Position numbers and translations under genes: made by a program. A DNA stretch of 64,000 nucleotides from a virus, in the IMG/VR virus record IMGVR_UViG_3300028365_000002, positions 1 to 64,000 of that record; one strand, given 5' to 3'. Positions within the stretch are counted from its first letter, which is position 1. The number at the start of each line of letters is the position of its first letter. The notes under the pieces were generated by a model. That model saw only the letters and a program-made list of their open reading frames with translations. It had not been told where the DNA came from and ran no database searches. Of the stretch, positions 10,430 through 31,209 are shown piece by piece.

Positions 10430-12016
10430 ATGAAACTTCAATTACAACAATTAATTAACCAATATCCAAAACACTATACTAGAATGATTAAAAAAGATAC
10501 TAATATTAACAAATTTGTAGAAACATTTATTGGAAATACAATTGCAGAAAAAGCATATAATGCATTACACAATCCTATAACACAATGTCCTCATGGCCAG
10601 CAATATAAATTTAAAGGAATAACCCAGGGATACTCCTTTTGTGGCAGGGCAAATGCGTGTAAATGTGCTAGAGAAAGTGTTTCTCTAGCAGTGTCTAATA
10701 CTAAGAAAAAGTTTACCGAAGAGAAAAAACAACAAATACAATCAAAAAAAATTAATAGCTTAAATAAAAAATACAATGTCAACAACGCAGGAAAATTAAA
10801 ACATGCTATACAAAATCATGCAGACTTTTATAATAATTCCGATAACGTAAATACAGTTGTATCAAAAGTACAACAAACAAAACTTATCAAATACGGAAAT
10901 TCTAATTACAATAATCCTGAAAAAATTAAACAGACTTTTAAAGAAAAGGATACTGTTTTTTGGCAACAGCGATTTCCTGAAAAAGATATTTCAACATTAC
11001 ATGATAAATTGGCATTAAAAAAAATGTTTGAAACTATACCCATTACTGACATTGCAACAACACTTGGCGTTCATATACAAACCGTTTATCAGTACCTCAA
11101 TAAGCATAAAATTAAAAGTCCTTACCAGAGCTCGTATGAGCAAGAAATAGTATTGTTTTTGCAGAGTTTAGGAATTACAAACATAATACGCAACACACGG
11201 AAACTGTTACCTAGCGGCAAGGAAATTGATATTTATTTGCCGGACTACCGTTTAGCAATTGAATTTAACGGAATTTATTGGCACCACGAAGATATAAGTC
11301 ACATCACTCGGTCTTATCACAAAAACAAGTTTATAGAAGCCGAGTATTTAGGAATACAGCTAATTACTATCTTTTCAAACTTTTGGAACACGCGCAAAGA
11401 TATTGTAAAACAATCTTTAATAAATAAACTAGGCTTAGATACTCAATCGATTTATGCCAGACAAACAGTAGTCAGACTGATATCTGCAAAACATACAACA
11501 GAGTTTTTAAATAAAAATCATATACAAGGATACACGCCGGCTTCGGTATGCTACGGATTATTTGATCATAACGATATATTAGTTGCTGTAATGACGTTCT
11601 CGCGTTCACGCATTGCACTAGGCAAGCAAACTCGGGGATTTGAATTAGTAAGATATGCTAGTGCGTTACGGGTAGTTGGAGGCGCAGGAAAATTATTAGC
11701 AGCATTTTGTAAAGAATATCCTGATCAAGCAGTGTATTCTTACAGCAACAACGAATGGAGCAACGGCAGTTTGTATAAAACACTTGGGTTTGATTTAGAA
11801 AGAGACATTGATGTTAGCTATTGGTATATTCATCCAAGAGAAGAAAAACTAATGCACCGGTTTAATTTTTCAAAACAAAAGTTAATTAAAAAAGGATACG
11901 ATAAATTAAAAACAGAAAAAGAAATATGCAAAGAAATTGGGTTACTTAAAGTGTGGGATTGCGGCAAGCGGCGATGGATGTTAGAATCTAGTAATTCACG
12001 AAAATCAGGGTTATAA
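10430..12016 (+). CDS. Free-standing homing endonuclease, EDxHD (Vsr-like) family
   Basis: 528 residues. The N-terminal ~230 are basic and helical, with a helix-turn-helix-like segment near 190-215 (ITDIATTLGVHIQTVYQYL). The nuclease core follows: YEQEIVLFLQSLG (~236-248), KEIDIYLPDYRLAIEFNG (~263-280) and YWHH (~283-286). That gives the E...D...E...H order of EDxHD/PD-(D/E)XK phage homing enzymes, a family including cyanophage F-CphI. Residues ~345-500 carry a second module (FELVRYASALRVVGGAGKLL, YSYSNNEWSNGSLYKTLGF, KVWDCGKRRW) found at the C-terminus of many phage homing proteins. It lies on the plus strand between minus-strand late genes, beside the gp23 capsid gene. That is typical of a mobile element that spreads by cutting a neighbouring essential gene in intein/intron-free relatives. 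The ribosome site is weak. Confidence 0.85.
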   Translation: MKLQLQQLINQYPKHYTRMIKKDTNINKFVETFIGNTIAEKAYNALHNPITQCPHGQQYKFKGITQGYSFCGRANACKCARESVSLAVSNTKKKFTEEKKQQIQSKKINSLNKKYNVNNAGKLKHAIQNHADFYNNSDNVNTVVSKVQQTKLIKYGNSNYNNPEKIKQTFKEKDTVFWQQRFPEKDISTLHDKLALKKMFETIPITDIATTLGVHIQTVYQYLNKHKIKSPYQSSYEQEIVLFLQSLGITNIIRNTRKLLPSGKEIDIYLPDYRLAIEFNGIYWHHEDISHITRSYHKNKFIEAEYLGIQLITIFSNFWNTRKDIVKQSLINKLGLDTQSIYARQTVVRLISAKHTTEFLNKNHIQGYTPASVCYGLFDHNDILVAVMTFSRSRIALGKQTRGFELVRYASALRVVGGAGKLLAAFCKEYPDQAVYSYSNNEWSNGSLYKTLGFDLERDIDVSYWYIHPREEKLMHRFNFSKQKLIKKGYDKLKTEKEICKEIGLLKVWDCGKRRWMLESSNSRKSGL

Positions 12017-12076: not shown

Positions 12077-13258
12077 TTAGCTAAAGCTAAGATTACCAGT
12101 GTTGACTCCAACAACACCCAGGTAGTCAGCTGCGTTACCAAGTGATGACGCAGTGTTAGTTAGTTCTACATAACCATACCGTGTCATAAAGCTAACCACT
12201 GGCTCGAATGTTTGTGGATCAAGCACAACGCCGGAACTCATTAGTGGAATGTATGGGCAATAGAAGGCCGCTGCATCTGATTCACTTGTTCCTTTGTAGC
12301 CAATGATCACATCATCTGAAGTTGCATATGTGTTGACATATACTTTCATTGCGTTGTTAAGAGTACCGACCATTTTAGTGTTGGTTGGTGCTTCAAATGT
12401 GCCTTCGGTAGTACGAGCAAATGCCGAAGTAGTTGCTGACTGTAGAAGTGTAAGAACAGTTGGGGAAACAACTGCCCAGTTACCTGCACCGCGACGAGTA
12501 CGCTGAGCGATTAGGTTTGATACTCTGTTGATCTGAACAGCTAGTGCAGCATGCTCGTCACCGACAAAGGTAGCAGTACCGGATACTGCTGCTTGATCGT
12601 AAGTTTCTACAGCAGAACCAGCTAGTGAGCGCAGGCTGCGTAGTACTTCTTGATCAATTTCAGCAGTAATTTCTTGTGCAAGAGCAGCCATGATTTCTGC
12701 TTCTACGTCGATGCCATGCATCGCTTGTGCGTCTTGTGCAGCTTCAAAAGTCCAACGTGCTGATAGCTTACGTGATTTAGCTTCAACAGTCTGCTTGAGG
12801 ATCTGGATAGACATCCTGTTACCAGCAACGCCTTCGAGCGCCGCAGTATTTGCCGGACGACCATTGCCAGTGCCAATGTTACCTGAGTAACCTTCAGCAA
12901 TCTTGAATGGACTTAGGGCTTCTTCACCAGCTGTTACGTTTCCGCCGACACCGTCAGTGAAGCCGTCACTGTAACGCACACGTAGAGTGTGAATCTGCGA
13001 TACTGGTCCCTGCATTGGCTGTACACCAACAAGCTCGTTTGCAATAACAGTAGGCATAACACGTCTAATCACTGGAAGGATTACACGGTGTAGTGTTGCG
13101 ATATTACCAGCAGAAGTGGCACCGGCAGTTGCACTTTCTGAAAGATACTTACGAGTATTTTCCAGTGTAACATTCATTACTGCTTTTTTGTTGCCTGCAA
13201 GGCCTTCAAGAAGGGCACCCTTGGTCTCCTGCCATCTACTTTCTAATAGTTCTGACAT
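12077..13258 (-). CDS. gp23: Major capsid protein gp23
   Basis: 393 residues forming the hexameric shell. The signature gp23 region is clear: VILPVIRRVMPTVIANELVG followed by VQPMQGPVSQIHTLRVRY (residues ~58-95). The C-terminal segment PQTFEPVVSFMTRYGYVEL is also diagnostic. It is the last gene of the head module and ends at a strong terminator. T4 gp23 has 521 residues and is cleaved by gp21 after an N-terminal propeptide. Here the region before the conserved core is only ~55 residues (LLEGLAG, then NVTLENTRKYLSES) and the middle is compact, so part of the T4 insertion domain seems absent. ATG at 13258 follows a GGAGAATC ribosome site, 12 bp from the gp22 stop. Confidence 0.95.
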   Translation of the reverse strand: MSELLESRWQETKGALLEGLAGNKKAVMNVTLENTRKYLSESATAGATSAGNIATLHRVILPVIRRVMPTVIANELVGVQPMQGPVSQIHTLRVRYSDGFTDGVGGNVTAGEEALSPFKIAEGYSGNIGTGNGRPANTAALEGVAGNRMSIQILKQTVEAKSRKLSARWTFEAAQDAQAMHGIDVEAEIMAALAQEITAEIDQEVLRSLRSLAGSAVETYDQAAVSGTATFVGDEHAALAVQINRVSNLIAQRTRRGAGNWAVVSPTVLTLLQSATTSAFARTTEGTFEAPTNTKMVGTLNNAMKVYVNTYATSDDVIIGYKGTSESDAAAFYCPYIPLMSSGVVLDPQTFEPVVSFMTRYGYVELTNTASSLGNAADYLGVVGVNTGNLSFS

Positions 13259-17122: not shown

Positions 17123-20017
17123 TTATGACCCAAACGGCGCATTGCCGCCTTGTGTATCTGCAGATGCTCCAGGCGATGCACTTGCGTCACCGGTTGTATC
17201 ATCTAAGTCTATATCAGAGTCTGGTCCATCTGCTGCACCCATGTCTGCACTAATATCTGCGCCTGTAATGCCAGCATCTCTCATTTGAGAGCTTGCATCT
17301 TGCTCGCCTGTTTCAAACTCATCTTCGTTTTCTTCTCTCCAAAGCTTTTCGTTGGTGGCAATTTCTTCCTTGGACAATCCTAAAAATCTCTCTAACGCAA
17401 AACGGTTGGCAATAAACGGAACAGCTTGCATAGATGAGAAAGTTGAAATTCTATTGCTGTCAAGTTCTGCTTGTCGATAGCTTGCAAAGTTTTGCGGTGG
17501 CTGTAATTTCAGATCAAACATTGCAACATCGATGTTGATGCCTTTTTGACTTAGATAAAGTTTAAATTCTTTGTTAAACACTTCGGCAACAAGGCTCTGT
17601 AGTCGTTCACAATAGTTGTTGAAGCGTAGCTCTTGAATGTAAGCAGTACCAACACGTCCGTCATTGAATTGGCTTGCACTATCATCGGCACCGGTTGGAA
17701 GGTACGAACTGGGAATACGAAGACCGCGTAACAATTTGTTGGTAAAGTATCTTAAGTCGTCAATCTCTCCAAGGTTGGTACCGCCCGGAAGTGTTTCAAC
17801 TTTTGATCCTCTACCTTCACTGTTGTGAACATATATTCCAGCTGCTAGTCCAAACCAATGGCTGTTACTGTCACTTAAAACAGTAATATCTCCAGTGTCC
17901 ATAGTTTCAGTTAACCATTCAATAGCCGCAACTTTGTGATTTTGTTTGTTAGAGAACTTACTATGCTGACCAGTATAATCTTTTTTCCAATCGCCAAATG
18001 TTCTATATCCTACTACTCCTACAATCTTGTTAAGAGTAGTATCAGTAACCTGTAAGTTGCTGCTTTTATTTTTGTCTCTCTTTAAATTTGTATTTGCATC
18101 TTTGAATGATTGTTGAAATTCCTCGTTATTTTGAAGATGCACTGATAACTTAGAAATACTATCATTGCCAGTATCAAATGCTTCCTTCATTTTATTAAAC
18201 ATGTTTATTGAGAAGTTTATTGTCTTAGCAGCTGAGTTTTTGTTTCTTGATAATTGTAATGACTTGTAAACAGACTGTCTTGATTCTCTTGAAATTTTAG
18301 ACCATCCAGCTAACGCATTTTTTTGATTGCGCTTACTGATTTTTTCCATAAAGCAACTATCCGAATTGGCATACAAGTTCTTCATTCCGTCTAATAACTT
18401 TTGTCGAGATTCTGGATTACTCCACTGCTTATTAATGCTGTATGAACCTGCATTCCTATGTAATTCAATATGATCCGCAGTTAACAGTACTTGTAAATTA
18501 GTCGGATTATTGTTTTTGCTGTTAAAGTCAACATGGTGAACTTGAGTATCTTTTCCCGGCTGCTTGTTTGCCACAGTAGCATGAACAAACTTAATACTTC
18601 CTTCGTTGTTACTACGGTACCTTGTGTATTTTTTATTTTTTTGTTTTGGACCAGAATATCCATCGCGCAATTCTAGCGGCATTAAGCTGTCATTGATTAA
18701 AAGATGCTGAGCTTCTACTTCTCTACCGTCGCGCATAATGAACCTATGATCAGGCGTAGAGGTGATGGTTTCACCGTTGTCCAGTGTTATCTTTAAAACT
18801 TTAGCATTTTTACGAGTGATACCAGCCCACTTGATTTCAGCTGATTCCATTTCATGAGTAATGTTGCTCAACCCATAAGTCCAATTACGCTTGCCATTTT
18901 TATATTCTAAAATTATTTCATCTAACGTTAGCGTCCTTCCGTCTAATAACGGTATTGGTGTTTCTAATGAAAGGCAGGTCTGGGGGAAGAAATAATCCTC
19001 ATTGATAGACAACGGATTGTATGAACTATCAATAACAGTTTGACCTCCGCCTGTCTTCGATGGAATTCGTCTTTGGTGAATTTCTGTTTTTACTCTTTCC
19101 ACAAACTGCATAGCAAGGTGACTTGGCATGTTGCCAACGTCTACATAAAATACTCTGCGCTCTGGCGCACGCTGAACGCGGTAGATGATGATTGCATCCT
19201 CTAGTAATTCTTTTTGCTTGTAAACTTTGAAGATGCTTTCCAGCAAACTGTTGCCAAACGGATAGTTTTGATCCATTCCTTCGCTAAGAGACATGTGTAT
19301 AACATGTTCTGCATCAACTGCTGTCTCGTTCGATTCGTTTGAGAATCTACTTGTGTTCAAATCTGGTGTACTTCCGGGTGCGCCTCCGCCGCTGCCCATA
19401 GACGGTCCGCCCATGCCTCCTGCGCCGTTTGGTCCGTATGCATTAGTGGTGTTTAGCTTGGTCGCCGACAAGCTTTCAAATGATATGTTTATATCCTTAA
19501 CCATGTATTGCTCTGGACGCTTGCCTTCACTTTCGTTTACAATAATTTTACTCAAGTTAGCAGGATCAACATGGAACCACTTTTTGGTTTCAGGGTCTCT
19601 TAGGAAAAATTGGTCACCATACTTGAAAATATTTCTAATAATTCTAAACATACGAGTTTCAAATTCTTGTAATTTTGCCCACCGGTGAAGATACTGACTT
19701 AGAATTTGCACTTCGCTGTTAGTAGGCGCGCCATTGTATTCAATTTTAAATGGTGTGTTGTTTTCTTTGTTCTTTTGAGTGCAAAACTCAGCAAGGATGT
19801 CCAATGCTGCATTTATTTCAGAATCACTGTCCATGGTGTTGTATTGTCCGTAGCGTTCAACACGGTTTGGATTGCCAACATAAACGTCTGGAAGATGTGA
19901 ACTATAATTAGAGGCAGCAGGACCGAGCCCTTGTCCTTTTGAGAAACTAAAAGGACTATAGCTGCCTCCCTGATTCATGCTTGTCGGAACAGGCGAGAAG
20001 TATTTTTTCCACGACAT
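17123..20017 (-). CDS. gp20: Portal vertex protein gp20, interrupted by an intein
   Basis: 964 codons: a 347-residue N-extein, a 385-residue intein (residues 348-732) and a 232-residue C-extein, so the spliced portal is 579 residues, near the T4 size of 524. Portal features include the N-terminal GNPNRVERYGQYNTMDSDSE (~48-67), ALDILAEF, FEFETRMFRIIRNI-like stretch at ~119-130, APERRVFYVDVGNMP (~284-298) and SINEDYFFPQT just before the intein. After it come SEGRGSKVETLPGGTNLGEI, LRIPSSYLP and NDGRVGTAYIQELRF. The C-tail is acidic and Gly/Ala-rich. gp20 forms the dodecameric DNA entry ring and starts head assembly. It is the first gene of the leftward head operon. Splicing is needed for a normal portal. 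Confidence 0.95.
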   Translation of the reverse strand: MSWKKYFSPVPTSMNQGGSYSPFSFSKGQGLGPAASNYSSHLPDVYVGNPNRVERYGQYNTMDSDSEINAALDILAEFCTQKNKENNTPFKIEYNGAPTNSEVQILSQYLHRWAKLQEFETRMFRIIRNIFKYGDQFFLRDPETKKWFHVDPANLSKIIVNESEGKRPEQYMVKDINISFESLSATKLNTTNAYGPNGAGGMGGPSMGSGGGAPGSTPDLNTSRFSNESNETAVDAEHVIHMSLSEGMDQNYPFGNSLLESIFKVYKQKELLEDAIIIYRVQRAPERRVFYVDVGNMPSHLAMQFVERVKTEIHQRRIPSKTGGGQTVIDSSYNPLSINEDYFFPQTCLSLETPIPLLDGRTLTLDEIILEYKNGKRNWTYGLSNITHEMESAEIKWAGITRKNAKVLKITLDNGETITSTPDHRFIMRDGREVEAQHLLINDSLMPLELRDGYSGPKQKNKKYTRYRSNNEGSIKFVHATVANKQPGKDTQVHHVDFNSKNNNPTNLQVLLTADHIELHRNAGSYSINKQWSNPESRQKLLDGMKNLYANSDSCFMEKISKRNQKNALAGWSKISRESRQSVYKSLQLSRNKNSAAKTINFSINMFNKMKEAFDTGNDSISKLSVHLQNNEEFQQSFKDANTNLKRDKNKSSNLQVTDTTLNKIVGVVGYRTFGDWKKDYTGQHSKFSNKQNHKVAAIEWLTETMDTGDITVLSDSNSHWFGLAAGIYVHNSEGRGSKVETLPGGTNLGEIDDLRYFTNKLLRGLRIPSSYLPTGADDSASQFNDGRVGTAYIQELRFNNYCERLQSLVAEVFNKEFKLYLSQKGINIDVAMFDLKLQPPQNFASYRQAELDSNRISTFSSMQAVPFIANRFALERFLGLSKEEIATNEKLWREENEDEFETGEQDASSQMRDAGITGADISADMGAADGPDSDIDLDDTTGDASASPGASADTQGGNAPFGS
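17822..18976 (-). mobile_element. In-frame intein with HNH homing endonuclease inside gp20
   Basis: 385 residues from Cys348 to Asn732 of the precursor. Splicing blocks are all visible: A, CLSLETPIPLLDGRTLTLDE; B, GETITSTPDHRF with the T-x-x-H motif (Thr421, His424); F/G, NHKVAAIEWL and HWFGLAAGIYVHN, ending His731-Asn732, followed by Ser733 as the +1 nucleophile. The HNH nuclease is QVHHVDFNSKNNNPTNLQV then TADHIELH (His494/495, Asn501-507, His516/520). A long basic helical region (~525-690) follows, ending in a 'GYRTFGDWKKDY' segment. Flanks join as ...DYFFPQT / SEGRGSK..., an uninterrupted portal sequence. The insertion point is in a highly conserved stretch of gp20, as usual for homing inteins. 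No frameshift or missing catalytic residue is seen, so it is probably active. Confidence 0.93.
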
Positions 20018-24957: not shown

Positions 24958-25239
24958 TTATGTACTGTGATGTTTGCCTAAAAAATTATTTTTTTTTTGC
25001 CTTTGAGCGAGTTCTTTGATTGCTATTTGTCTTGCATAACTTGTTTTGTCAAATCTACTAATAATAAATTCCAAGTAGCTAACAGTTAACTCAGATATCT
25101 CTTTGCCTTTGTGGATACCGTTTATTGGCCACACCCCTTTGTTTACAAGGTGCTGATAACTGGTATCGTCAATTTGTGATTTTATTAGTTTGCCTAATTC
25201 TCGTTGTCGCCAGCCTGTGTTTTTACTTTTTTTTGGCAT
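24958..25239 (-). CDS. Small DUF3820-like protein (93 aa)
   Basis: 93 residues. The central part WPINGIHKGKEISELTVSYL (~37-56) followed by EFIISRF and a helical KELAQRQKKN end matches the 'G-K-x-KG-x-x-[IL]-x-x-[LV]-x-x-x-YL' layout of DUF3820-type small phage proteins, often found near exonuclease or recombination genes. The match is by eye and weak. Its start overlaps the GIY-YIG gene by 17 bp, so they are co-translated. No catalytic residues can be named. Confidence 0.65.
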   Translation of the reverse strand: MPKKSKNTGWRQRELGKLIKSQIDDTSYQHLVNKGVWPINGIHKGKEISELTVSYLEFIISRFDKTSYARQIAIKELAQRQKKNNFLGKHHST

Positions 25240-25657
25240 GTTCTAACAATCGCTGCCGAAGTATATTTGATCCGCCTACTCTTACGTTAATGATACCGTT
25301 GTAGTAATCATCTGTTTCAAGAACTTTACGATCAAACTGCTGTTTTGCCTCTATGTAACTTAATTCACCTCTGCTCATGCAGTAGAAAAGTATTTCCCTA
25401 GTAAATTTGTCGTCACCGAGTGCAGCGATGTCAGCAAGCAACTTATCCGATGAGCCCCAGTAGGTTCTCCAGTCGCTTTCTTTAGTGCCGCGCCTTTTAT
25501 TTTTTTTGCCTTTAAGAGGTGGTTTGGTTGTTTTAAACTCTGTGAGTTTTTTGCCTATGTATTTTCTATTGTTTGTCAAATTTGTAATAAGATAAACGAA
25601 GCCTATGTAGCCTTCTGGTATATTTTCAACCGGTTCGTCATTGTACATCCATTGCAT
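25223..25657 (-). CDS. GIY-YIG-type endonuclease-like protein (144 aa)
   Basis: 144 residues. GFVYLITNLTNNRKYIGKKL (~19-38) is a GIY-YIG core in which the GIY element reads FVY and YIG is intact. It is followed by a Lys-rich loop, WRTYWGSSDKLLADI (~67-81), KFTREILFYCMSRGELSYIE (~89-108) with a conserved Glu, and a late DDYYNGIINV. Such proteins include T4 Seg homing endonucleases and small phage nucleases related to them. It lacks the long C-terminal DNA-binding domain of Seg proteins. I recall close relatives fixed next to gp46/47 in marine myoviruses, so it may be a resident nuclease rather than a mobile one. Confidence 0.75.
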   Translation of the reverse strand: MQWMYNDEPVENIPEGYIGFVYLITNLTNNRKYIGKKLTEFKTTKPPLKGKKNKRRGTKESDWRTYWGSSDKLLADIAALGDDKFTREILFYCMSRGELSYIEAKQQFDRKVLETDDYYNGIINVRVGGSNILRQRLLEHAKKK

Positions 25658-25923: not shown

Positions 25924-27924
25924 TTACACAACACTGCTAATTTCAAGATCGTTACTAAAGGTTGTAAAGCCGTTTTCTTTAATCACCTTTAATAAGTGGT
26001 TAACTCTACCAATTAGCTCATCTTTGTGAGATATTAAAAATATATTCTTATTTCTTTCTCTTCCCATCTTCTTTAGGATAGCAAGAGAATTTTCAACTCC
26101 GGCTGTGTCCATTCCGCTGTCAATAAGTTCGTCTATGAACAGTAAATTAACACCTTGGTACAACGATTCCCATACATCGCGGAATGCAAAGCTCAATCCT
26201 AGGATCAATCTGTTGCGTTCTCCTCTTGACAAGTTGTCAAAGTCCAAATCTTGGCCTAGTTGTGTGATTTCTACAGATAAATCATTTTGAAATTGTACCT
26301 GATGTGGTAATCCTAGCTTGTCAAGGTATGAAGTTAGCCTGCTGTTGAGGTAAGCAAGGTTTTGATCAATGATCTTCTTGCGAATAAAACTGTCCTTGTT
26401 GGTTAACAGCTTGAGAAGGAACTCTTGGTGCTCTTTTAGCAATGTAAGTGTGTTTACTTCATCCCAACTCACATCTTGCAATGCAGTTTCGGTTAAATCG
26501 TCAATTTGCTGCTGGTAAGGGTCTTCGTCATCGAGTTTGGTTTGCAGAGCATTGGTTAGTGAGTCGACATTATTTCGATGCTCATAGGCTTCTTTGGCAT
26601 TTTCATAATAAGTCTTTGGTCTGCCGTTGATATCGCCAATGTTTTCAAGTGCTGTTAGTACTGTACCGAGTTTACGAGCAACTTCGCTCTGGTATGTAGT
26701 AGCATCCTCTAGTTCTTTGTTCCGTTTAGCTGTAATCTCTGCTTTTTTGTCTGCATGAAGTTCTTGTCCGCATGTGTAACACGTTGCATTGTCTAACCCG
26801 GATATATCATTAACAAGTGTACTCACACCTTTGTCAGCCCGTAACATAGCAGAGTCCAGTGTTGACTTTTCCTTGTTGAGTGCTGTTATTTCGTTGTTGT
26901 GCTTGGTCCAGTTGGCAAGCAAATCGTGAGCTTCTAGCTCTTTGTCAATGTCTAGACGCTCGAGTTCTGTAATTGCTGACTGAAACTTTACAATATCCTG
27001 CTTTGTCTTGGTGTTCCATGCATTCCGTCGAGTCTTTAGTGTGTTAATACTCTGGCCAATCTTCTCATTGCTTGTTTGAATGGAACTGATCTTAAGAGTT
27101 TCTTCGGTAATAGACTCTTTTGTTCGCTTTACCTTCTCTTTGAGTACTTCGGCCTTCTCGGAAAGCAAGGTAATACCTAATAGCTGTTCGATGATCTCTC
27201 TTTGATCATTGGTTCTCATACTAAGGAACGGTTCGGAGTAGGTGTTTAGAGCTACAATATGCTTGAACATGTTGTGGGTCATTCCTAGTAATGTACCAAT
27301 TGCCTTTTGTGTTTCTCTGCTGTCGCCTTGACTTTCGTCGGTAGTAGCGTCAACTTGTTCAATATCGTTTACATAAAATTTGAGTACATTAGGAGATCTT
27401 CCACGCTCGATGCGATAAGTTAGTCCTCCCTTTTCAAAGTTTAGTGTAACCAACATACCTTTGCGGTTGGTCTTGTTGATCAAGTTGTTCCGTTTGATGT
27501 TAGTAAGCGCTTGTCCGTAAAGCGCATACGACAATGCGTTGATGATAGTGGTATTATGCGAAAGTATGTTGTTTGAATAAAATCTGTGATCATTGCTATC
27601 TACTGTTACGTCAAACATATTCTCGCAAAGGTCGGTTTTGATAAGTTTTACAACTAGATCAGGACCGTGCTTTGTTATTATTTTTGTTTTGTTTTTGATA
27701 ATATCTTTAACAAAAATTTCATCGAAGCTTTGGTCGAACACAATATGAGTATCAGCACATTCTAGAATTAATCCAGAATCAGTCTCTAGTTTCCACACTG
27801 TATATGGAACAGTTTTGTGAATAGTAGTTACAGGATGCCACCCGCTATCTGTTTCAATTTCCAAGTTGGATAGATCCAGGCTATCAATAAACTTTCTTTC
27901 TATTGTGTTAGAAATTGTATGCAT
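25924..27924 (-). CDS. gp46: gp46 recombination nuclease, C-terminal fragment with C-intein
   Basis: 666 codons. Residues 1-124 are the C-half of a split intein and residues 125-666 are the rest of gp46. The C-extein opens TTIINALSYALYG, completing the Walker A motif. It continues with coiled coils on either side of a zinc-hook CYTCGQ (~residue 382), then the ABC signature LSRGERNRLILGLSF, Walker B NLLFIDELIDSGMD and the D/H-loop IFLISHKDEL. gp46 is the SMC/Rad50-like ATPase partner of gp47 in T4 recombination and DNA end processing. After joining with the 52-residue N-extein it would be 594 residues, against 560 in T4. The ATG overlaps the end of the homing endonuclease ORF by 25 bp; AGAGG lies 13 nt upstream. 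Alone the fragment lacks the P-loop glycines and lysine and could not hydrolyse ATP. Confidence 0.93.
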   Translation of the reverse strand: MHTISNTIERKFIDSLDLSNLEIETDSGWHPVTTIHKTVPYTVWKLETDSGLILECADTHIVFDQSFDEIFVKDIIKNKTKIITKHGPDLVVKLIKTDLCENMFDVTVDSNDHRFYSNNILSHNTTIINALSYALYGQALTNIKRNNLINKTNRKGMLVTLNFEKGGLTYRIERGRSPNVLKFYVNDIEQVDATTDESQGDSRETQKAIGTLLGMTHNMFKHIVALNTYSEPFLSMRTNDQREIIEQLLGITLLSEKAEVLKEKVKRTKESITEETLKISSIQTSNEKIGQSINTLKTRRNAWNTKTKQDIVKFQSAITELERLDIDKELEAHDLLANWTKHNNEITALNKEKSTLDSAMLRADKGVSTLVNDISGLDNATCYTCGQELHADKKAEITAKRNKELEDATTYQSEVARKLGTVLTALENIGDINGRPKTYYENAKEAYEHRNNVDSLTNALQTKLDDEDPYQQQIDDLTETALQDVSWDEVNTLTLLKEHQEFLLKLLTNKDSFIRKKIIDQNLAYLNSRLTSYLDKLGLPHQVQFQNDLSVEITQLGQDLDFDNLSRGERNRLILGLSFAFRDVWESLYQGVNLLFIDELIDSGMDTAGVENSLAILKKMGRERNKNIFLISHKDELIGRVNHLLKVIKENGFTTFSNDLEISSVV
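27553..27924 (-). mobile_element. C-terminal half of split gp46 intein (124 aa)
   Basis: Starts at the ATG at 27924 (MHTISNTIERKF...) and ends in NILSHN, with Thr as the +1 residue. It carries block B as GLILECADTH (C-x-x-x-H, the form also seen in gp41-1-type inteins). It also carries blocks F/G as MFDVTVDSNDHRFYSNN followed by ILSHN. Because block B is here and not in the N-half, the intein is split unusually early. Confidence 0.9.
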
Positions 27925-29006
27925 TTCTCTAATACTTCCTCTTTATTTCTTTTAAAATCACTTTCCCAGACAACTAAAACTTCGTATCCTTGATCTTCGG
28001 CAAATTTAATTTTTTGTTCGTCTAACTTCCATTTTTCAGAAGCTATCAGTTTAGTTCTAGGATTTATATAATCTGCAGAATATTTTTTAGGATTACAGTG
28101 CCAAAAGTCTCCGTTGTATTCAATAATTTTATTTTTGCAAGCAATATCGTAAACATATTGTTTTTTATTGTTAACTGATAAGGTAAATTGCGGTATAATT
28201 ATTAAGTCTTTATATGTTTTCTCTACTTCATTAATAATTTTTTTTTCAGCAGCCGAAACGGTTATTCCTTTTGTAAGTTTTAATCGATTAATTCTTGCTT
28301 TCTCTTTATCTGACTTTGAATTTAATGTCTCTTGCCAACGGTCTTGTCGATCTTGCCAAATTTTTAATCCTCTTTCTTTTCCATATTTTTCGATACATAT
28401 ATCTTTAGAAAAATATTTTTGACCTTTGGCTACTAATTTTTTAGATTCTTCTTTGTTATAACCTCTTGTAGTATAATATTCAATACATCGTTTTGATGTA
28501 ACACGTCTTACATCCGAATCTGCAGATTTTTTTGCTCCTTTTTTGTTATTAGAAGATTTTGTTTCTTTTGCTAGCCTGGATGCGTCTTCGACGTTATATC
28601 CTTTATTAATCCAATATTCTTTTCTAATAGGTCGACGACTGTTACGTTCAAAATCTGCTTCTTCGACTGTATAAAGCTTGTTAGTAGACAGGTTAATTTT
28701 TTCTAACCAAAATTCTCTGCTATATACACTTTTATAATTTTTTTGTTTGTTTTCTTTTGAATTAACATAAGCTTCGTTGTCTGTCCAGCCTCTGAGGGTC
28801 CAATACTTTTTTGTATGTCTTGAATCTTTTGTAACAATACCTAATCTATTTCTAATATAGGTTTCGATATTTTTTTTATTATTTTTTATATCTAAAGCTA
28901 ACACTTCATCAAGCATCTTATTATAAGTATTTGTTTCTATATTTTTAATTACATTATTTAATATATCAATGCAATTATTTTTTAGACTGTTGTTCCATCG
29001 CGGCAT
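27900..29006 (-). CDS. Homing endonuclease ORF inside the fractured gp46 gene
   Basis: 368 residues. ATG at 29006 has an AGGAG site nine bases upstream. The middle (~65-190) holds about four copies of a 'K-x-Y-W-x3-G-[YW]-x3-E-A' motif (KKYWTLRGWTDNEAY, KEYWINKGYNVEDAS, IEYYTTRGYNKEES), likely DNA-binding repeats. The C-terminal ~110 residues form an EDxHD/Vsr-like nuclease: AAEKKIINEVEKTY (Glu), YVYDIACKNKIIEYNGDFWH (Asp, Glu, His) and GYEVLVVWESDF. The ORF overlaps the N-fragment by 32 bp and the C-fragment by 25 bp and is out of frame with both. It is therefore a separate gene between the intein halves, the 'fractured gene' arrangement described by Dassa and colleagues in metagenomic phage genes. 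It probably spreads the split intein. Confidence 0.88.
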   Translation of the reverse strand: MPRWNNSLKNNCIDILNNVIKNIETNTYNKMLDEVLALDIKNNKKNIETYIRNRLGIVTKDSRHTKKYWTLRGWTDNEAYVNSKENKQKNYKSVYSREFWLEKINLSTNKLYTVEEADFERNSRRPIRKEYWINKGYNVEDASRLAKETKSSNNKKGAKKSADSDVRRVTSKRCIEYYTTRGYNKEESKKLVAKGQKYFSKDICIEKYGKERGLKIWQDRQDRWQETLNSKSDKEKARINRLKLTKGITVSAAEKKIINEVEKTYKDLIIIPQFTLSVNNKKQYVYDIACKNKIIEYNGDFWHCNPKKYSADYINPRTKLIASEKWKLDEQKIKFAEDQGYEVLVVWESDFKRNKEEVLEKCIQFLTQ

Positions 29007-29244
29007 TGTATAGCTCTCCTATTGTTGTTTTGTAAATTTCACCTGTAACAGTGTTTCTTACCTTTACAATAGTATTTATACAAAGGCATTTGCCAGTACC
29101 GTTTCGTGAACCATTGTCGTCACCACCTTGATCAAGGTTCTCACCAAGCACTAGTGTTAACTGTTCTTTATCAAAATCCACAGCTTGCGTTACATTCCCC
29201 ACTGACATAAAGTTCTTTGCGGTTAAGTCTTTAATTTTTATCAT
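28975..29244 (-). CDS. gp46: gp46 recombination nuclease, N-terminal fragment with N-intein
   Basis: 89 codons. Residues 1-52 are the start of gp46 (MIKIKDLTAKNFMSVGNVTQ... and the P-loop glycines ending NGTGK). Residues 53-89 are an N-intein beginning CLCINTIVKVRN. The extein stops exactly after the Walker A lysine, so the nucleotide-binding loop only becomes complete after trans-splicing to the C-fragment (next residues TT). The ATG overlaps the gp47 stop by 4 bp (ATGA), the usual gp47-gp46 coupling, so the original operon start is preserved. The fragment ends with a normal stop, and its last 32 bp overlap the homing endonuclease start. Confidence 0.93.
   Translation of the reverse strand: MIKIKDLTAKNFMSVGNVTQAVDFDKEQLTLVLGENLDQGGDDNGSRNGTGKCLCINTIVKVRNTVTGEIYKTTIGELYNAAMEQQSKK
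28978..29088 (-). mobile_element. N-terminal half of split gp46 intein (37 aa)
   Basis: Cys53 to the last residue of the N-fragment: CLCINTIVKVRN, then TGEIYKTTIGELYNAAMEQQ. It has block A with Cys1 but no block B. At 37 residues it is much shorter than the ~90-100 residues of usual N-inteins. This resembles the atypically split inteins known from other phage genes. Confidence 0.9.
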
Positions 29245-30251
29245 AAGTCGTTATAAATATCCAAAAGAACCTTTTTATCAAAGGCTTCACTATCGATTGC
29301 AAGTATTTCGTTACTAACAATTTGATCAACACTCTCGAACTGTTCGATATCAAGTCCGGTATTAATTTCTTCGAGTTGTTTCTGCGGTATTAATGTAATT
29401 TCTCGACATTTGTACTCTTCCATGAATGTTTCTTTAATGAAAGATGCTTCCTCAAAGCTGATTGGTATGTCGAGTACTACCCTAAGGTACATCTTATTTT
29501 TGATCAATTCATCTTTCTCATCGATCAGCCTACTAAGAGTAACTGTGCGATACTTAGGACATTGTTCCCAATTGATATACTGTGGTTCGGCATTGTTTTC
29601 AGTGTCCAGTATCATCATTCCTCTGTCATCGTCCCATGCATCAGCATAGTTGTGAGGAAACGCATTGCCCATGTAGTGAACTTTGCCTTGTTTCTGACGT
29701 TTGTGGAAGTGGCCGCTGAACACATACTCTTGATGTTTGAAATGTTCAGCTTTTAGCTCACCGTGATCGGGCATTTGCACCATTGCGTTCATGTAGAACG
29801 ATGGCAATTCGAAGTGTCCAAACAAATACTTTGATTTAATCTTGGAAATACCTTTCCATTCGTCGCCCACTAGCCACGGAACCAGTGCAACGTCACCATC
29901 GATGAAAGTTTCGTTAACAACTGTAATTCCCGGAACATGTTTTGCAAACTCTGTGGACTTAACATCTCTTTTGTCTTTGTAATAGAGATCATGGTTGCCT
30001 GCAAACATATAAAATTTGTCAAACGCTGCACCTAGTTTCTCCAAACACCGCAATCCACTGTCCATTGTGGTTAAATTTAGTGCATTTCTATTATGATTCC
30101 AGTCGCCGCAGAAGATTCCAGTTTCGCAGCCATTTGCTTTTGCAGTAGCAATGTACCAGTCGACAAATTCTTCACAATCGTTGTTGTGTACCTTGGAATT
30201 ACCTTTCATTCCAAGATGAAGGTCAGTAAAGACCGCTGCTTTTTTAAACAA
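29241..30251 (-). CDS. gp47: Recombination nuclease subunit gp47
   Basis: 336 residues, as in T4 (339). Mre11/SbcD-type metallophosphoesterase with all metal motifs: D10-L-H12, GDWNHNR (49-55), GNHD (85-88), GHFE (145-148) and GHFH (180-183). With gp46 it resects DNA ends for recombination-dependent replication. The start is TTG at 30251 (MFKKAAVFTD...), with GGAG seven bases upstream; no ATG fits better. It lies 52 bp after gp55 and overlaps the gp46 N-fragment by 4 bp. It is intact, unlike its partner. Confidence 0.95.
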   Translation of the reverse strand: MFKKAAVFTDLHLGMKGNSKVHNNDCEEFVDWYIATAKANGCETGIFCGDWNHNRNALNLTTMDSGLRCLEKLGAAFDKFYMFAGNHDLYYKDKRDVKSTEFAKHVPGITVVNETFIDGDVALVPWLVGDEWKGISKIKSKYLFGHFELPSFYMNAMVQMPDHGELKAEHFKHQEYVFSGHFHKRQKQGKVHYMGNAFPHNYADAWDDDRGMMILDTENNAEPQYINWEQCPKYRTVTLSRLIDEKDELIKNKMYLRVVLDIPISFEEASFIKETFMEEYKCREITLIPQKQLEEINTGLDIEQFESVDQIVSNEILAIDSEAFDKKVLLDIYNDL

Positions 30252-30303: not shown

Positions 30304-31134
30304 CTATTTCTTTTTATGAGAGTCTTCAAATCTTTGAAGCCCCAGCTCGTATTCGCCTTCGGCTTGCCGAGTAAACGACGGAGTTAGGTTATTCATTTCA
30401 AGAATGTTGTCTCTTACTTGCCGATTTCGCTGTTCGATGTTAATAACTCTAACAAATGAGTTGGTAACAGCAGCAGTGTAGTAAGCAAATGGGTTTTGAC
30501 TCTTTGATTCGTCAAATTGCAACCCGATCTGAGCCAACTGCAAAATAGCCTGTCCTTTCATTTCGTCATTGTAAGTGTAACCTCTTACATTGCCCCTGGT
30601 TGCATATCGTTCGCACAACTTCAACCACATCATTGCAAGTGTGTTGGTAGCTCTTCCGTGTTCTTTGGAAAAATGTCCGTTTTCCATACCGCCCTGCCAA
30701 TGACTCTTGCCTACTAGAATTAATTCATCATTTTCGTTGTACTTGTAATGGTGAAACGGAGGAAAGTTTAACTTGGTCTTGGTATCAGCAACAGTCTTGG
30801 GGTTTTTCTTACGACCGGGCTCTTCTGGTATATGGTCAAATGTCATAACTCTAAAAATCAGATCGTGTTTTTCTATTTTTCTATAGTCGTGTTCACAATC
30901 AGCTTGCTTTACCTTTTCGCCGGCTTTCTTTCGACAATCATATTCTTCCGAGCTAAGTTTCTTTGCTTTGTTGCGTTTAGCTTCGGCTACTGTCCTGATA
31001 TTAATTTCATTAGTACTCAGTAAAATAATGTCGTGATTAGCGTATTCGGGCGCAACAAAGCTAGAATACGTGCTTTTCGACTTGTGAATTTCTTTCAGCA
31101 TGTCTTTATTATTGAGATAGTTTACTCTTTTCAT
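30304..31134 (-). CDS. gp55: Late-transcription sigma factor gp55
   Basis: 276 residues from the ATG at 31134 (MKRVNYLNNKDMLKEI...), which has GGAGAAACT directly upstream; a longer frame from 31206 lacks a site and would run into the promoter. The C-terminal half carries the sigma region-2-like part: GRATNTLAMMWLKLCERYAT, then QNPFAYYTAAVTNSFVRVIN followed by EQRNRQVRDNILE. This is where T4 gp55 binds core polymerase and the TATAAATA box. It is longer than T4 gp55 (185 residues) because of an extended N-terminal region (~1-140). It opens the leftward early/middle unit and would switch on the late promoters listed here. Confidence 0.9.
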   Translation of the reverse strand: MKRVNYLNNKDMLKEIHKSKSTYSSFVAPEYANHDIILLSTNEINIRTVAEAKRNKAKKLSSEEYDCRKKAGEKVKQADCEHDYRKIEKHDLIFRVMTFDHIPEEPGRKKNPKTVADTKTKLNFPPFHHYKYNENDELILVGKSHWQGGMENGHFSKEHGRATNTLAMMWLKLCERYATRGNVRGYTYNDEMKGQAILQLAQIGLQFDESKSQNPFAYYTAAVTNSFVRVINIEQRNRQVRDNILEMNNLTPSFTRQAEGEYELGLQRFEDSHKKK

Positions 31135-31155
31135 AGTTTCTCCAAACTTAGTATT

Positions 31156-31184
31156 ATAATAATACACATAGTTAATTTTGTCAA
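31156..31184 (-). promoter_or_regulatory. Sigma-70-type early promoter for gp55-gp47-gp46
   Basis: On the minus strand TTGACA (31179-31184, exact consensus) and TATTAT (31156-31161) are 17 bp apart, 22 bp before the gp55 ATG. This host-type promoter makes the gp55 unit early. Confidence 0.7.
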
Positions 31185-31191
31185 CTAAATA
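31184..31191 (+). promoter_or_regulatory. Possible late promoter (ACTAAATA) for the baseplate operon
   Basis: ACTAAATA stands 19 bp before the gp48 ATG and shares a base with the -35 box of the opposing early promoter. A transcript starting 6 bp downstream would begin within the AGGAG ribosome site, so the leader would be very short and the call is tentative. Confidence 0.35.
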
Positions 31192-31209
31192 CTGTAGGAG
31201 AAACAAATA

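What the first reader, a model, noticed from the sequence alone, without database searches (positions are those of the whole stretch)
25924..29244. gp46 is fractured at its Walker A motif by a split intein with a homing endonuclease gene in the gap
The gp46 ATPase is encoded by two separate ORFs. The first ends with the P-loop lysine and a 37-residue N-intein starting with Cys. The second begins with a 124-residue C-intein ending HN and resumes at the Thr-Thr that must follow the lysine. An EDxHD-type nuclease ORF lies between, overlapping both by 25-32 bp. The protein can only be active after trans-splicing through its catalytic loop. The layout matches the 'fractured gene' class reported from metagenomic phage sequences, but I do not recall gp46 as a described host gene.
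Basis: partly seen in the sequence, partly recalled or inferred. Interest (0 to 1): 0.92.

Follow-up and report, generated by a model that had tools for sequence, protein, structure and literature searches.

The report
Phage repair gene split by intein
In a T4-like virus a mobile element has cut the gene for a key DNA-repair enzyme in two exactly at its ATP-binding loop, so the enzyme probably has to be stitched back together as protein, and the element appears to carry its own hidden late "on" switch.

Summary
Three overlapping minus-strand ORFs encode a gp46 N-half ending at the P-loop Lys plus a 37-aa N-intein, a 368-aa Vsr/EDxHD-like nuclease, and a 124-aa C-intein plus the rest of gp46, resuming at Thr-Thr. 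No second gp46 was found in the 115-kb record or in a 251-kb near-identical record. About 34 distinct gp46/SbcC copies share the fracture, with Cys1, block-B His and terminal His-Asn invariant and all modules under purifying selection; 78 close relatives are intact at the same codon. Fractured copies are scattered among intact ones. The same intein-nuclease family sits at the same Lys|Thr/Ser site in terL, DnaB-like helicase and Clp-like genes. The split lies between blocks A and B (VidaL/Cat type), not at the usual site. New here: the N-intein encodes a near-invariant late-promoter box (NATAAATA), present in 49 of 56 distinct loci with nuclease sequence and 0 of 7 without; a hairpin over the nuclease start is only weakly supported. 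Trans-splicing itself is inferred, not shown. The class is known; gp46 as host and the nuclease-linked promoter look new in the literature I could read.

The parts
29089..29244 (-). gp46 N-extein, 52 codons, ends ...RNGTGK (Walker A lysine)
   Evidence: phrog_77 match to residues 1-52
28978..29088 (-). N-intein, 37 codons, Cys1, block A only
   Evidence: Cys1 in 27/27 distinct joined inteins
28975..29244 (-). whole N-half ORF (89 aa) with stop
29073..29080 (-). TATAAATA, late-promoter-type box inside the N-intein coding sequence (codons Ile4 ATA, Asn5 AAT)
   Evidence: consensus TATAAATA/NATAAATA from PMC2984593
29006..29083 (-). possible RNA hairpin: the promoter-side arm pairs with the sequence at the nuclease start codon (tentative)
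29016..29020 (-). AGGAG Shine-Dalgarno-like site of the nuclease gene, inside the N-intein
27900..29006 (-). homing endonuclease gene, 368 aa; Vsr/EDxHD-like nuclease domain at the C-terminus, target-specific N-terminal region
27937..27940 (-). AGGA, possible Shine-Dalgarno site of the C-half, inside the nuclease gene
   Evidence: by eye
27553..27924 (-). C-intein, 124 codons: block B CADTHI, block F, block G ILSHN
   Evidence: VidaL 3.9e-10, Cat 2.1e-7, gp41-1 2.4e-11
25927..27552 (-). gp46 C-extein, 542 codons, starts TTIINALSYALYG; includes a Rad50 zinc-hook-like CxxC
25924..27924 (-). whole C-half ORF (666 aa) with stop
29241..30251 (-). gp47 (SbcD-like nuclease), overlaps the gp46 N-half start by 4 bp
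30304..31206 (-). gp55-like late sigma factor (would read the TATAAATA box)
   Evidence: phrog_12791 4.2e-76

Best explanation
A mobile split intein sits in gp46, the phage Rad50/SbcC ATPase. It consists of two intein halves and a homing endonuclease gene between them, and it entered precisely after the Walker A lysine codon. Steps inferred: (1) the two precursor proteins are made separately, each from its own start site; (2) the 37-aa and 124-aa intein pieces associate and trans-splice, joining ...GTGK to TTII... to give a 594-aa gp46 with a restored P-loop; (3) the endonuclease cuts the uninterrupted site in co-infecting phages, and repair copies the whole element in; the nuclease's N-terminal half gives target specificity and its C-terminal Vsr/EDxHD-like domain cuts; (4) a late promoter box hidden in the N-intein codons (TATAAATA) turns on the nuclease, and incidentally the C-half, late in infection. 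A hairpin may mute the nuclease on earlier read-through transcripts, as for I-TevI in T4. Shown here: anatomy, conservation, site precision, mobility signature, host range of the family, codon-level constraint on the box and its link to the nuclease. Not shown: splicing, cutting, promoter activity.
For: Exact anatomy. Invariant Cys1, block-B Ala-Asp-x-His, block-F Asp and His-Asn in 27/27 distinct joined inteins from several host genes. Profile matches to solved split inteins VidaL, Cat and gp41-1. Purifying selection on all modules: pN 0.04-0.33, well below pS in the same pairs. Empty sites in 78 relatives at the same codon. Fractured copies interspersed with intact, at least 4 changes forced by starred branches; L093 and L096 inteins group together (87/67) while their exteins reject it (p-AU 1e-11). 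Nuclease gene lost with both intein halves and catalytic residues kept as separate ORFs: L003, L181, L194, L201, L224. Nuclease N-terminus tracks the host gene: alignment starts at residue 1-28 in 32/32 gp46/SbcC loci, at 66 or later in 23/24 others. Ile4 is ATA in 51/52 and Asn5 AAT in 56/57 distinct loci, against background 0.28 and 0.68; 0 of 29 N-extein and 0 of 193 C-extein conserved columns are codon-invariant. Box present in 49/56 loci with nuclease sequence, 0/7 without (Fisher 6e-6, not corrected for relatedness). Same overlapping three-gene layout in isolated phage Aes123 polB, whose intein is the split intein engineered in PMC11923092.
Against: No biochemical evidence in this phage. 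The AlphaFold model of the C-half alone is poor (mean pLDDT 69.6) and the joined intein could not be modelled here. TATAAATA as a motif is not enriched in the window (9 against 5.8 expected), and promoter activity is by consensus only. Hairpin support is uneven (z from -6.9 to +0.4) and predicted start-site accessibility does not differ between long and short transcripts in the close gp46 group. The intein data alone do not reject the extein clade (p-AU 0.26).
Confidence: 0.88

Rival explanations
1. The two gp46 halves work as a non-covalent two-subunit enzyme, as the split NrdA of phage Aeh1 does, and the intein pieces are relics.
For: Non-covalent split phage enzymes made by homing endonuclease insertion exist (PMC2988022).
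Against: Catalytic intein residues invariant and intein halves under purifying selection, also in copies that lost the nuclease. The cut lies inside the P-loop, between Lys and Thr, where covalent continuity is expected to matter.
Confidence: 0.05
2. The insert is an intron or an assembly error rather than a split intein.
For: Homing endonucleases often ride in group I introns.
Against: No Rfam match between 25500 and 30500; continuous intein coding up to both junctions; the same structure in many independent assemblies, with four contigs carrying a nuclease 100% identical to the window's.
Confidence: 0.01
3. Trans-splicing occurs, but the TATAAATA box is only a by-product of the conserved Ile-Asn-Thr peptide and codon bias, not a promoter.
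For: Ile4-Asn5-Thr6 is conserved at protein level; AT-rich genomes; the motif is not enriched overall.
Against: ATA is 28% of Ile codons yet 51/52 here, and the two codons are the only invariant ones in the N-intein. All 7 loci without a nuclease lack the box, by changes such as Ile4 to Thr, Lys or Tyr, Ile4 ATA to ATT, or Asn5 to Asp. The phage encodes a gp55-like sigma factor.
Confidence: 0.2
4. The element has been domesticated: splitting gp46 is now a timing switch useful to the phage, with gp46 assembled only when the C-half is made.
For: Splits persist after nuclease loss in several loci.
Against: Sporadic distribution, many intact relatives and tree discordance fit a selfish element; nuclease loss is accompanied by loss of the box.
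Confidence: 0.1

Closest known systems
Fractured genes with split inteins and a Vsr-like endonuclease (Dassa et al. 2009; paper not held here, recalled from memory)
   Same: Conserved phage enzyme gene broken by a split intein with a free-standing Vsr-like endonuclease gene between the halves
   Different: I could not read its list of eight host enzymes or its remarks on control elements, so gp46 or the promoter may be mentioned there; here the split is at the atypical position
Aeromonas phage Aes123 polB (gp43B1 / VSR endonuclease / gp43B2), JN377899
   Same: Same three overlapping genes (16 and 17 bp overlaps), related nuclease (37.6% over residues 276-364; fold E 2.6e-8); its intein is the Aes123 PolB1 split intein of PMC11923092
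   Different: Long N-piece and short C-piece (canonical split), no cysteine nucleophile, no ATAAATA in the record
Atypically split inteins AceL-TerL, VidaL, Cat, PolB16
   Same: Short N-piece with block A only; C-intein profile matches VidaL 3.9e-10, Cat 2.1e-7, PolB16 0.008
   Different: N-piece of 37 aa here, against about 15-25 aa in the described ones (PMC11923092); host gene gp46 not found among them in the papers read
T4 intron endonuclease I-TevI control
   Same: Endonuclease with an embedded late promoter and, possibly, an RNA fold that mutes it on early transcripts (PMC2988022)
   Different: Here the promoter lies inside intein codons; the hairpin is only weakly supported
P-loop inteins of terminases (TerL1-a, mycobacteriophages)
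   Same: Insertion between the invariant Lys and the nucleophilic Thr (PMC5050341)
   Different: Not described there as split with a separate nuclease gene; this one is in two ORFs with a nuclease gene between
I-Bth0305I / Vsr endonucleases
   Same: Predicted nuclease domain matches 3r3p and 1vsr, probability 0.99
   Different: Sequence match not significant; different N-terminal region

Membership tests
Fractured gene (split intein plus nuclease gene) | Conserved enzyme gene broken into two ORFs at one point | tested here: met
Fractured gene (split intein plus nuclease gene) | Complementary N- and C-intein pieces at the break | tested here: met
Fractured gene (split intein plus nuclease gene) | Separate endonuclease gene between the halves | tested here: met
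Fractured gene (split intein plus nuclease gene) | Trans-splicing joins the exteins | not testable with these tools
   needs expression or mass spectrometry
Class 1 split intein | Nucleophile at position 1, block-B His, penultimate His, terminal Asn, nucleophile +1 | tested here: met
   Cys1, His97, His160, Asn161 in 27/27; +1 Thr or Ser in the listed gp46 loci
Atypically split intein (AceL-TerL/VidaL) | Split between block A and block B, short N-piece | tested here: met
   VidaL and Cat profile matches
EDxHD/Vsr homing endonuclease | Vsr/I-Bth0305I-like nuclease fold | tested here: met
   Foldseek probability 0.99 to 1vsr and 3r3p, though E 0.1-0.2; viral Vsr-annotated protein E 2.6e-8
EDxHD/Vsr homing endonuclease | Significant sequence relationship to a characterised member | tested here: inconclusive
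   best E 0.04-0.25
EDxHD/Vsr homing endonuclease | The namesake E-D-x-H-D residues in place | not tested
   invariant D287, E296, G299, H303 seen, but the founding alignment was not available
EDxHD/Vsr homing endonuclease | Cuts the intact allele | not testable with these tools
   needs an in vitro cleavage assay
gp46 / SbcC / Rad50 | SbcC-like sequence with partner gp47 next to it | tested here: met
   phrog_77 3.4e-87, phrog_100 3.1e-68
T4-type late promoter | TATAAATA/NATAAATA box with a gp55-type sigma encoded by the phage | tested here: met
T4-type late promoter | Transcription starts there late in infection | not testable with these tools
   needs 5'-end mapping

The most novel reading that the evidence does not exclude
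The N-intein coding sequence doubles as a late-gene control element: a gp55-type promoter, and perhaps an RNA switch, written into block A and kept only while the nuclease is present. The element would then make the nuclease and part of the gp46 C-half late, inside the very recombination nuclease (gp46/47) thought to help process the breaks that homing creates.
Probability: 0.4. Interest if true: 0.75.

Novelty: new variant of a known kind. Interest (0 to 1): 0.62.

Why it matters
It adds the phage Rad50/SbcC ATPase to the genes known (to me) to be rebuilt by protein trans-splicing, at a catalytic loop. Because gp46/47 possibly takes part in homing repair in T4 (PMC2988022), the element interrupts part of the machinery it may rely on. 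It gives dozens of new short-N split inteins with GK/TT junctions, useful for protein semisynthesis. The nuclease-linked box in intein codons offers a natural test of how a selfish gene writes its own timing into a protein-coding element.

Tried and rejected
Chance or assembly error: rejected (many assemblies). Group I intron or other RNA family: no Rfam match. Second gp46 copy: none found. Start-site sequestration by the hairpin: pairing exceeds shuffled and slid controls, but computed accessibility of the start region is the same for long and late transcripts in the close gp46 group (0.58 and 0.59), so kept only as tentative. C-half structure model: too poor to use. Strict test that the intein phylogeny rejects the extein clade: not significant (p-AU 0.26); only the converse test for L093+L096 is strong, and that pair was chosen after seeing the tree. 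Literature: intein with gp46, Rad50 or SbcC gave no report of an intein in gp46; Dassa 2009 and Thiel 2014 are not held. Isolated phage Cr30 as a laboratory stand-in: its terL is intact and its related nuclease gene free-standing.
Full report
WHAT IS THERE. The N-half (29244..28975) is gp46 residues 1-52, ending RNGTGK, followed by a 37-residue N-intein starting with Cys. The nuclease gene (29006..27900) overlaps it by 32 bp, and the C-half (27924..25924) overlaps the nuclease gene by 25 bp. The C-half starts with a 124-residue C-intein ending ILSHN and resumes with TTIINALSYALYG. PHROG matches place the two halves on contiguous parts of the SbcC profile, positions 295-333 and 334-955. gp47 precedes gp46, and a gp55-like late sigma gene lies further upstream. 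The window is part of a 115,228-base virus record. Neither it nor a 251-kb record with identical gp46 halves and nuclease holds another gp46; both may be incomplete.

RELATIVES. Scans of IMG/VR gave 78 intact gp46 genes at about 72-77% identity, all reading GTGK-TT without a gap, and many fractured ones. After removing duplicates there are 34 distinct N-inteins in gp46/SbcC genes and 29 in other genes (that list keeps only loci with Lys before Cys1). The other hosts are terL, a DnaB-like helicase, a ClpA/B-like ATPase and another AAA+ protein. Where both junctions could be read, the break follows the Walker A lysine and the C-extein begins with Thr or Ser in nearly all cases. In L137 and L221 the N-piece matched belongs elsewhere in the gene. 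This is the 'classic' P-loop intein site (PMC5050341).

IS IT A WORKING SPLIT INTEIN? In 27 distinct joined inteins Cys1, the block-B A-D-x-H, the block-F Asp and the final His-Asn never vary. A profile of the C-intein matches gp41-1 (2.4e-11), VidaL (3.9e-10) and the Cat consensus intein (2.1e-7) in the PDB. The N-piece holds block A only, so this is the atypical split. Non-synonymous change is far below synonymous change in the exteins, the C-intein and the nuclease, and lower also in the N-intein. Several copies have lost all or most of the nuclease gene but keep both intein halves and their catalytic residues as separate ORFs: L003 (gp46), L201 (SbcC), L181, L189 and L194 (terL), L224 (DnaB-like). 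This argues that splicing is maintained independently of the nuclease. Splicing itself could not be tested here.

IS IT MOBILE? On a gp46 tree, fractured copies fall among intact ones, with at least four changes forced by well-supported branches, for example L003 beside intact L049 and L092 beside intact L071. Intact relatives were collected by closeness to the window, so the count is a lower bound. The inteins of T4-type gp46 form one group apart from those of terL and the more distant SbcC genes (support 92). Within gp46 the intein tree differs from the extein tree: L093 and L096 inteins group together (87/67), whereas the extein data reject that pair with p-AU 1e-11. The pair was picked after seeing the tree, and the intein data alone do not reject the extein clade (p 0.26). 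The nuclease's predicted fold matches Vsr (1vsr) and I-Bth0305I (3r3p), both at probability 0.99 but with E-values of 0.1-0.2; a viral protein annotated as Vsr endonuclease matches more strongly (2.6e-8). Its N-terminal half is shared among gp46/SbcC loci (alignments start at residue 1-28 in 32/32) but not with the others (start at 66 or later in 23/24), while the C-terminal domain is shared by nearly all. The simplest reading is target recognition at the N-terminus and cutting at the C-terminus.

THE HIDDEN PROMOTER. Synonymous change is unusually low in the N-intein. In 16 divergent gp46 loci only two degenerate codons of the N-intein are invariant, Ile4 ATA and Asn5 AAT; none of 29 conserved N-extein columns and none of 193 C-extein columns is. 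Invariant codons in the C-intein (Ile4, Ser5) and at the nuclease's Gln364/Phe365 fall in or beside the ORF overlap; Glu120 and Lys332 of the nuclease are the only others. The two codons, with the base before them, spell TATAAATA (29080..29073), the late-promoter box of T4 and KVP40; NATAAATA is that of cyanophage S-PM2 (PMC2984593). Across all distinct loci Ile4 is ATA in 51 of 52, with a background of 28%. The box is present in 49 of 56 loci with nuclease sequence and in none of 7 without (Fisher 6e-6; relatedness not corrected). Six of the seven have no room for a gene between the halves and the seventh, L189, keeps a 120-aa remnant. The seven are in gp46, SbcC, terL and DnaB-like genes; one (L222) is a cis intein with no nuclease beside a nuclease-bearing near-twin (L219) that has the box. 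The bare motif is not enriched in the window, so the case rests on codon constraint and the link to the nuclease. T4 intron endonucleases are likewise driven by embedded middle or late promoters (PMC2988022). A hairpin pairing the promoter stretch with the nuclease start region is predicted in most gp46 loci, with some compensatory change, but z-scores are uneven and computed start-site accessibility does not change in the close gp46 group. I treat it as a lead.

MOST LIKELY MECHANISM. Two precursors are translated from their own start sites, assemble through the intein pieces and splice to 594-aa gp46 (inferred). The nuclease, expressed late, cuts intact gp46 in co-infecting relatives and the element is copied in (inferred from distribution and precise site). 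Since gp46/47 possibly takes part in processing homing breaks in T4 (PMC2988022), the element sits in part of the machinery it may use.

KNOWN OR NEW. The general class, a fractured gene with a split intein and a Vsr-like nuclease, is known (Dassa 2009, recalled, not held). Aeromonas phage Aes123 polB shows the same overlapping layout, and its split intein is the one engineered in PMC11923092. Atypically split inteins are known too. What I could not find is gp46 as a host or the nuclease-linked late-promoter box. From memory, the Dassa abstract mentions eight DNA synthesis and repair enzymes and 'gene control elements', so part of this may have been anticipated. I therefore file it as a new variant of a known kind.

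Noticed in passing
window 17123-20017 (-): Portal protein gene of 964 codons with an in-frame intein that carries an HNH endonuclease (...FFPQT|CLSLETPIPLLDG ... AAGIYVHN|SEGRGSKVETLPGG).
   Followed up: partly
window 25223-25657 (-): SegE-type GIY-YIG endonuclease gene (Pfam 1.5e-35) just downstream of the gp46 C-half: a second, free-standing endonuclease next to the fractured gene.
   Followed up: no
window 10430-12016 (+): HNH homing endonuclease gene on the opposite strand beside the major capsid gene (12077-13258).
   Followed up: no
L236 1-4001 (from the 251-kb record that holds L084): Ribonucleotide reductase gene with one cis intein and two more breaks with split-intein ends in 4 kb; this virus is unusually rich in inteins.
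   Followed up: partly
L115, L123, L140, L166, L175, L211: terL genes fractured twice: at Walker A by this family and again further downstream by another split intein, so three polypeptides would have to be joined by two trans-splicing events.
   Followed up: partly
L205 3974-5008: Nuclease gene with the usual N-terminal modules, but the C-terminal domain looks GIY-YIG-like instead of Vsr-like: a possible nuclease-domain swap (by eye).
   Followed up: no
L219 412-3348 and L222 2506-4728: terL with the intein in one continuous ORF; in L219 a 279-aa nuclease ORF lies inside it in another frame, in L222 the nuclease is gone and the late-promoter box is mutated.
   Followed up: partly
L238 2566-3588: In isolated Caulobacter phage Cr30 a related nuclease gene (44% over residues 175-366) stands free just upstream of an uninterrupted terL.
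   Followed up: partly
L107 160-1500; L134 4317-5404; L140 5593-6581: Nuclease ORFs broken by frameshifts next to intact C-inteins (in L107 the N-intein too); decay or sequencing error.
   Followed up: no
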